NCBI GenBank assembly: GCA_003009795.1
Contig: PXPE01000001.1
Location: 248,001-312,000 of the forward strand
Reading direction: 5' to 3'
Origin: Nanohaloarchaea archaeon SW_7_43_1
GTDB taxonomy: Archaea > Nanohalarchaeota > Nanosalinia > Nanosalinales > Nanosalinaceae
Length of the DNA: 64,000 nt
Shown here: positions 38,345 to 42,758 of the stretch, in pieces
How the letters are laid out: the number at the start of each line of letters is the position of its first letter
Position numbering within the stretch: the first letter of the stretch is position 1
The notes under the pieces: generated by a model
What the model saw: only the letters and a program-made list of their open reading frames with translations
What the model was told of the DNA's origin: nothing
Databases searched by the model: none
Program-made: the position numbers and the translations under genes

Positions 38345-38487
38345 TGCCGGGGATGAGATTTGAACTCATGAACCCCTACGGGACAGGATAACTTAAGTGA
38401 AAACCCTTTAGTTTTCTATGTCCTCGTTCCCTGAAGAGAACTTGAGGGTCTTAAGTCCTGCGCCTTTGGCCACTTGGCTACCCCGGC
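38345..38487 (-). tRNA. tRNA-Leu (anticodon TAA) with a 60-base intron
   Basis: Acceptor GCCGGGG/CCCCGGC, D-arm GCC-AAGTGGCCAAA-GGC, anticodon stem CAGGA/TCCTG, a long class II variable arm (TCCCGTAGGGG region) and T-arm ATGAG-TTCAAAT-CTCAT. The anticodon is at 38451-38453. The intron occupies about 38390-38449, directly after position 37, the canonical archaeal site. Discriminator A; CCA not encoded. Confidence 0.88.
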
Positions 38488-42298: not shown

Positions 42299-42457
42299 TA
42301 GCCCCCAGAGGATTCGAACCTCCGTCACCGGCTATCTTTTTCGAAGATCAGAGATCTTCTCAATCCCCGTCCCTAAGGACTTGAGGTTCCAAAGGCCGAT
42401 ATGAATGGTCCTACCGAAGTCAAACATCAGATAGTTTGACCGCTACACCAGGGGGCT
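42299..42457 (-). tRNA. tRNA-Gln (anticodon TTG) with two introns
   Basis: The exons rebuild a cloverleaf matching the adjacent tRNA-Gln: acceptor AGCCCCC/GGGGGCT, D-stem GTGT/TCAT with loop AGCGGTCAA, anticodon stem TCGGC/GCCGG with loop CTTTGGA (T33, anticodon at 42390-42392), variable TGAC, T-arm GGAGG-TTCGAAT-CCTCT. Two insertions must be removed: a 31-base one within the D-loop (42405-42435) and a 55-base one after position 37 (42334-42388). Discriminator A at 42299. Confidence 0.8.
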
Positions 42458-42506: not shown

Positions 42507-42579
42507 TAGCCCCCGCAGGATTCGAACCTGCGTCGAGAGGGCCAGGGCCTCTCATGATTGACCGCTACACCAGGGGGCT
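42507..42579 (-). tRNA. tRNA-Gln (anticodon CTG), intronless
   Basis: Acceptor AGCCCCC/GGGGGCT, D-arm GTGT-AGCGGTCAA-TCAT, anticodon stem AGAGG/CCTCT with loop CCCTGGC, variable CGAC, T-arm GCAGG-TTCGAAT-CCTGC. The anticodon CTG is assigned from the 7-base loop. Position 33 is C instead of the nearly universal T. Same D-arm and acceptor as the intron-bearing tRNA-Gln next to it, so the two are duplicates that diverged in the anticodon arm. Confidence 0.82.
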
Positions 42580-42613: not shown

Positions 42614-42758
42614 CGCCGGAGCTGGGATTTGAACCCAGGAGGGCGGTAATGCCCACCACCTGACCGAATCGAAAACCTAGATGGTTTTCTCAAACTGCCA
42701 TCTCTTTCGGGAAAGCAGTATTCCAGGGTGGCACCTTAGGCCACTCAGTCACTCCGGC
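42614..42758 (-). tRNA. tRNA-Ser (anticodon GGA) with a 59-base intron
   Basis: Acceptor GCCGGAG/CTCCGGC, discriminator G as usual for serine, D-arm with AGTGGCC loop, anticodon stem CCACC/GGTGG with loop CTGGAA-A (T33; anticodon at 42722-42724), a long class II variable arm (TGGGCATTACCGCCC) and T-arm CTGGG-TTCAAAT-CCCAG. The intron lies at about 42662-42720, after position 37. Confidence 0.88.

What the first reader, a model, noticed from the sequence alone, without database searches (positions are those of the whole stretch)
42299..42457. tRNA-Gln(UUG) with two introns, one inside the D-loop
The exons match the intronless tRNA-Gln beside it only if 31 bases are removed from the D-loop and 55 bases from the anticodon loop. 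The 31-base insert begins with a stem that pairs GTCAAAC in the D-loop with GTTTGAC, as a bulge-helix-bulge would need. Non-canonical D-loop introns are known mainly from thermophilic crenarchaea and Thaumarchaeota, and would be notable in a halophilic DPANN archaeon.
Basis: seen in the sequence. Interest (0 to 1): 0.65.

Follow-up and report, generated by a model that had tools for sequence, protein, structure and literature searches.

The report
Two-intron tRNA-Gln gene in nanohaloarchaeon
A salt-loving miniature archaeon carries a glutamine tRNA gene interrupted twice, once at an unusual place in the D-loop, and the same kind of D-loop interruption recurs in its relatives even though they have only the single-subunit-type splicing enzyme that textbooks say cannot remove such introns.

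Summary
Window 42299-42457 (minus strand) is a tRNA-Gln(UUG) gene whose 73-nt mature form appears only after removing 31 nt from the D-loop (42405-42435) and 55 nt from the anticodon loop at 37/38 (42334-42388). The 55-nt intron has a canonical bulge-helix-bulge (BHB). Fourteen tRNA-Gln D-loop introns from ten nanohaloarchaeal genomes fit that geometry in 111 of 112 pairs (shuffles 43.5 +/- 5). Intronless relatives have the exact junctions. The same genome has D-loop introns in tRNA-Val(UAC) and tRNA-Leu(CAA). It is the genome's only tRNA-Gln(UUG), so it should be functional.

D-loop BHB introns are known elsewhere. The unexpected part is the enzyme: only one 181-aa alpha-type EndA was found, a class held to cut only strict BHBs. 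It lacks an ARMAN-length loop at the ASL site but carries an invariant lysine-containing insert between the catalytic Tyr and His, a candidate separate route to broad specificity. Splicing itself is inferred; there are no RNA data.

The parts
42299..42457 (-). tRNA-Gln(UUG) gene, 159 nt including the discriminator base
   Evidence: the only Gln(UUG) gene found in G000
42436..42457 (-). exon 1 (22 nt): acceptor 5' strand and D-arm up to GGTCAA
   Evidence: matches the neighbouring tRNA-Gln(CUG) and intronless relatives
42405..42435 (-). D-loop intron, 31 nt, relaxed BHB (HBh')
42438..42441 (-). central helix H, exon side, GGTC
42407..42410 (-). central helix H, intron side, GACC
42430..42434 (-). 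intron helix h', 5' strand, CTATC
42411..42415 (-). intron helix h', 3' strand, GGTAG
42389..42404 (-). exon 2 (16 nt): TCATATCGGCCTTTGG, D-stem 3' strand to position 37
42334..42388 (-). canonical 37/38 intron, 55 nt, hBHBh' (TCGGC/GCCGG, CTTT/AAAG, GG^A, AT^A)
   Evidence: same-genus G001 has the exons joined exactly here
42299..42333 (-). exon 3 (35 nt): A38 to discriminator
42507..42579 (-). intronless tRNA-Gln(CUG), comparison gene

Best explanation
This is a functional tRNA-Gln(UUG) gene whose transcript has two introns removed by the cell's only detected tRNA-splicing endonuclease (EndA), with the exons joined by RtcB. In the D-arm, exon GGTC pairs with intron GACC, leaving the 3-nt bulge AA^A (5' site) next to the intron helix CTATC/GGTAG and an open 3' side AT^T (3' site). 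That is a relaxed BHB (HBh'), because no helix stacks directly on the 3' bulge. In the anticodon loop a strict hBHBh' is cut at 37/38. Cleavage and ligation yield the 73-nt tRNA. Shown: the exon/intron anatomy, the conserved motif, exact junctions in relatives, single EndA and RtcB genes. Inferred: that cleavage and ligation happen, that a homotetrameric alpha-type EndA does it, and that its Tyr-His loop insert helps.
For: Exact anatomy, and ARAGORN calls a plain tRNA-Gln(ttg) only after removal. Motif in 14 Gln genes of 10 genomes, 111/112 pairs vs 43.5 +/- 5 in shuffles. Every h' pair exists as several different Watson-Crick pairs. Intronless and singly interrupted relatives show both junctions; G001 lacks the 37/38 intron and joins exactly there. 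The same architecture sits in Val(UAC) of G000, G001, G007 and Val(CAC) of G018, and Val(UAC) of G022 equals the spliced G000 sequence letter for letter. D-loop intron also in Leu(CAA) of G000. Sole Gln(UUG) gene found, while CAA codons occur in ribosomal protein, secY and rpoD-like ORFs nearby. One EndA and RtcB.
Against: No RNA data. In G000 the D-loop BHB fold is about 5 kcal/mol less stable than the predicted minimum-energy fold of the precursor (-53.3 vs -58.4). The outermost H pair is G-A in 11 of 16 genes, so H is often three pairs. Published alpha4/alpha'2 enzymes are described as narrow (PMC6379350, PMC4033280, PMC4090602), so the enzyme step is in tension with known biochemistry.
Confidence: 0.83

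Rival explanations
1. Both introns are spliced as described, but by a heteromeric EndA whose structural beta subunit is too diverged to be found, so the usual rule (broad specificity needs (alpha-beta)2 or epsilon-2) holds.
For: The A1 profile finds the N. equitans beta subunit in the PDB (3iey_B, E 3.6e-8) but does not list the shorter or more diverged A. pernix and P. aerophilum beta chains, so a diverged beta could be missed.
Against: Only one EndA gene found in a complete single-contig genome by three searches; 19 of 20 genomes have exactly one, and the exception (G004) has two near-identical copies. The protein has both N- and C-terminal domains like M. jannaschii alpha4 (TM 0.82 to 1a79).
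Confidence: 0.12
2. The D-loop insert is not an intron: the gene is a pseudogene, or the mature tRNA keeps an enlarged D-loop.
For: No direct evidence of splicing; the unspliced gene is not recognised by ARAGORN or Rfam.
Against: Sole tRNA-Gln(UUG) found in the genome; insert absent at an exact junction in relatives; paired-base conservation across very different insert sequences.
Confidence: 0.03
3. The splice motif is the first reader's stem GTCAAAC/GTTTGAC.
For: It is in the minimum-energy fold of the G000 precursor.
Against: It puts the 5' junction inside a perfect helix, gives no 4-bp helix flanked by two 3-nt bulges, and is not conserved in the relatives, while GGYC/GRC plus h' can form in all of them.
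Confidence: 0.02

Closest known systems
Non-canonical BHB tRNA introns of Crenarchaeota (Thermoproteales) and Thaumarchaeota
   Same: Short introns away from 37/38, several per tRNA possible, relaxed BHB motifs (PMC3218864, PMC6379350, PMC8450103)
   Different: Here in a halophilic DPANN phylum; recurrent at one D-loop position of tRNA-Gln; no (alpha-beta)2 enzyme found
Relaxed-BHB introns of ARMAN-2 (epsilon-2 EndA) and split tRNAs and introns of Nanoarchaeum equitans ((alpha-beta)2 EndA)
   Same: Tiny symbiont-type archaea, relaxed motifs; N. equitans alpha and ARMAN-2 also have a long Tyr-His segment (15 and 14 residues)
   Different: Nanohaloarchaeal EndA is a single 181-aa alpha-type chain, with no epsilon fusion and no detected beta
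alpha4 EndA of Methanocaldococcus jannaschii
   Same: Domain layout and size, 36% identity over the fold, TM 0.82
   Different: 7 fewer residues between catalytic Tyr and His; reported as narrow, strict BHB only (PMC6379350)

Membership tests
Archaeal BHB tRNA intron (canonical, 37/38) | 4-bp central helix flanked by two 3-nt bulges, plus outer and inner helices | tested here: met
   55-nt intron: TCGGC/GCCGG, CTTT/AAAG, GG^A, AT^A; present in the minimum-energy fold
Relaxed BHB (HBh') non-canonical tRNA intron | Central helix with 5' bulge and inner helix; position other than 37/38 | tested here: met
   GGTC/GACC, AA^A, CTATC/GGTAG in the D-loop; 14-gene comparison
Strict BHB (hBHBh'), D-loop intron | Outer helix h stacked directly on the 3' bulge | tested here: not met
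   The 3-bp D-stem GTG/CAT is separated from H by TAGC on the 5' side
Archaeal BHB tRNA intron | Excision and ligation in vivo | not testable with these tools
   no RNA data
EndA (tRNA-intron lyase) | Homology and catalytic Tyr, His | tested here: met
   PF01974 E 1.4e-25, TIGR00324 110 bits over cut-off 59.6; Tyr110 and His127 invariant
alpha4-type EndA | Single gene of about 180 aa with N and C domains, no fusion | tested here: met
alpha4-type EndA | Homotetramer | not testable with these tools
   inferred from the gene set only
(alpha-beta)2-type EndA | Separate structural beta subunit gene | tested here: inconclusive
   none found, but a strongly diverged beta might be missed
epsilon-2-type EndA (ARMAN) | Three-unit fused chain of about 390 aa | tested here: not met
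   182-aa open frame
EndA with ASL-type specificity loop | Loop at the ASL site carrying Lys161 in ARMAN-2 | tested here: not met
   Segment YYGKIIEEEGYLELS is about 5 residues shorter than ARMAN-2 there; judged by sequence alignment only
EndA with crenarchaeal CSL | CSL with Lys44 in A. pernix | not tested
   No residue-level alignment to A. pernix was printed; the literature places CSL and ASL at equivalent positions (PMC6379350)

The most novel reading that the evidence does not exclude
Nanohaloarchaeota and Aenigmatarchaeota reached relaxed-BHB (broad) tRNA splicing with an alpha-only EndA, using a lineage-specific lysine-containing insert between the catalytic Tyr and His (GVNPYKxGxK or GVKLKKGPK) instead of a beta subunit or the CSL/ASL loops, and this allowed D-loop introns to spread.
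Probability: 0.45. Interest if true: 0.66.

Novelty: new variant of a known kind. Interest (0 to 1): 0.52.

Why it matters
[quoted passage not shown] A whole phylum with recurrent relaxed D-loop introns but only an alpha-type gene breaks that correlation, or points to a new way of obtaining broad specificity. It is directly testable with one recombinant protein and two short RNAs. Practically, the missed tRNAs (Gln-UUG, Val-UAC, Leu-CAA) explain apparent gaps in tRNA sets from tools that do not look for D-loop introns.

Tried and rejected
ARAGORN with introns allowed gives a spurious tRNA-Ser on the unspliced gene. A 1-mismatch T-arm scan was too noisy; the 0-mismatch scan worked. A phylum-wide search added nothing, since only 28 genomes of one order are held. 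Group I or II intron: not pursued, because 31 nt is far too short. Trans-splicing or permutation rejected: exons are contiguous and in order. The initiator tRNA-Met of G000 (L114) has an enlarged D-loop that I could not place confidently as an intron, so it is not counted. Held papers were searched for nanohaloarchaeal or DPANN non-canonical tRNA introns: I saw none that describes them, though one reports intron counts for two species (PMC10266531). Subscription papers are not held, so absence of a prior report is not proven.

Full report
What is there. Window 42299-42457, minus strand, reads as tRNA-Gln(UUG) in three exons of 22, 16 and 35 nt (73 nt in all) separated by inserts of 31 nt (42405-42435) and 55 nt (42334-42388). 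The unspliced gene is missed by ARAGORN without introns and by Rfam. Removing only the D-loop insert makes ARAGORN call tRNA-Gln(ttg) with a 55-nt intron, removing only the anticodon insert does not rescue it, and removing both gives a clean tRNA-Gln(ttg). All four stems of the cloverleaf can form: 7-bp acceptor, 3-bp D-stem GTG/CAT, 5-bp anticodon stem, 5-bp T-stem.

The anticodon intron is ordinary. It sits at 37/38, with outer helix TCGGC/GCCGG, 4-bp central helix CTTT/AAAG, and bulges GG^A and AT^A, and this motif is in the predicted minimum-energy fold. The same-genus genome G001 lacks it, and its sequence continues across the junction exactly as predicted.

The D-loop intron. The junction can be set without any folding, from homology: intronless tRNA-Gln genes of relatives read GGYCAA|TCAT, and this gene reads GGTCAA-31 nt-TCAT. 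With that junction fixed, the last nucleotides of the intron supply the partner of exon GGTC (GACC), leaving AA^A as the 5' bulge, CTATC/GGTAG as the intron helix, and AT^T at the 3' site. The D-stem does not stack directly on the 3' site, so this is a relaxed BHB of the HBh' kind.

Comparative test. A 5'-end pattern found tRNA-Gln genes in 26 of 28 genomes of the order. Fourteen genes in ten genomes (G000, G001, G003, G007, G009, G010, G015, G017, G018, G025) carry a D-loop insert of 20-66 nt at the same place. Scoring the three inner H pairs and five h' pairs, 111 of 112 are standard pairs, against a mean of 43.5, sd 5.0, maximum 58 in 2000 dinucleotide shuffles. The genes are not all independent (the G003 pair and the G009/G025 UUG pair are similar), but the h' pairs occur as several Watson-Crick types at each position. 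The outermost H pair is G-A in 11 of 16 genes, so three pairs often suffice. Some closely related Aenigmatarchaeota (G038, G039, G042) have a tRNA-Gln D-loop insert of the same architecture.

Not only Gln. In G000, tRNA-Val(UAC) (C1:839051-839155, minus) has a 31-nt D-loop insert with exon GGTT/intron GACT, AT^C and AA^G. G001, G007 and G018 have the like, and G022 has the spliced sequence letter for letter. tRNA-Leu(CAA) (C1:899561-899712, plus) has a 69-nt D-loop insert with TCAA/TTGA, AG^A and AG^G.

Function. The search found exactly two tRNA-Gln genes in G000, CUG and UUG. CAA codons are used in neighbouring ribosomal protein, secY and rpoD-like ORFs (14 CAA against 60 CAG in seven ORFs), so by ordinary decoding rules a functional UUG tRNA is required. 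Pseudogene status is therefore unlikely.

The enzyme. Three searches of the complete 956,550-bp genome find one EndA (C1:853474-854010, minus; 181 aa from the first Met) and nothing else related. Nineteen of 20 genomes have exactly one; G004 has two near-identical copies. Its AlphaFold model (pLDDT 86) is closest to M. jannaschii alpha4 EndA (1a79, TM 0.82). RtcB is present. [quoted passage not shown] Exceptions for intron position exist: Korarchaeum, and three thermophilic euryarchaeal methanogens listed with non-canonical introns (PMC4033280, PMC3218864). The ARMAN-2 specificity loop is not matched in length here. Instead, all Nanohaloarchaeota EndAs examined have 15-16 residues between catalytic Tyr and His, with GVNPY and a lysine invariant in the 13-sequence alignment, against 9 in M. 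jannaschii. N. equitans alpha has 15 and ARMAN-2 has 14, both broad enzymes; M. kandleri has 7 and is 'constrained'; Aenigmatarchaeota have 15 (GVKLKKGPK). That this insert confers broad specificity is my inference, from a handful of enzymes.

Identity. The nearest named relative by EndA is Nanohaloarchaea archaeon SW_4_43_9 (97%). Published genome descriptions of two other nanohaloarchaea report 15 of 39 and 4 of 38 tRNA genes with introns; the passages found do not mention D-loop introns (PMC10266531). I found no held paper that describes them. tRNAscan-SE 2.0 is built to find such introns (PMC8450103), so database entries may already hold some.

Verdict. The feature is real and belongs to a known kind, the relaxed-BHB non-canonical tRNA intron. 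It is a new variant in that it is a recurrent D-loop intron in DPANN archaea whose only detected EndA is of the alpha type. Splicing and the enzyme's specificity remain to be shown by experiment.

Noticed in passing
window 42507-42579 (minus): tRNA-Gln(CUG) has C at position 33 (anticodon loop CCCTGGC) instead of the near-universal U33; the same loop is in many family-f1 relatives, while others have U33.
   Followed up: partly
window 42334-42388, window 38345-38487, and L026 (G000 C1:452822-452955): The 37/38 introns of tRNA-Gln(UUG), tRNA-Leu(UAA) and tRNA-Gly(UCC) share a similar two-hairpin sequence (CCTCAAGTYC...GRGGA, then a second hairpin), also seen in Gln introns of relatives, suggesting that introns spread between tRNA genes.
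   Followed up: partly
window 42614-42758 (minus): tRNA-Ser(GGA) with an intron of about 60 nt in the anticodon loop; missed by ARAGORN without introns and by the whole-window Rfam scan, found by the local scan.
   Followed up: no
G000 C1:317691-320414 (minus), L270: RtcB is split by roughly 1.2 kb of in-frame sequence inside one 951-aa open frame, as expected for an intein in the tRNA ligase itself.
   Followed up: no
L114 (G000 C1:855030-855460): Initiator tRNA-Met has an enlarged D-loop as well as an anticodon-region intron; I could not place a D-loop intron confidently.
   Followed up: partly
L242, L243, L261 (Aenigmatarchaeota G042, G038, G039): tRNA-Gln genes that look interrupted three times: D-loop, anticodon loop and around the T-arm.
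   Followed up: no
L118 (G000 C1:612157-612223, minus): A degenerate second copy of tRNA-His (compare L023) with a broken acceptor stem.
   Followed up: no
L050, L051 (G004) and L236: Two near-identical, diverged EndA copies about 4 kb apart in Ca. Nanosalinarum J07AB56, and a 364-aa two-unit fused EndA in an Aenigmatarchaeote.
   Followed up: no
L081 (G018) and L248 (G047): Very short D-loop inserts: 20 nt in tRNA-Gln(UUG) of G018 and about 12 nt, too short for an inner hairpin, in G047.
   Followed up: no
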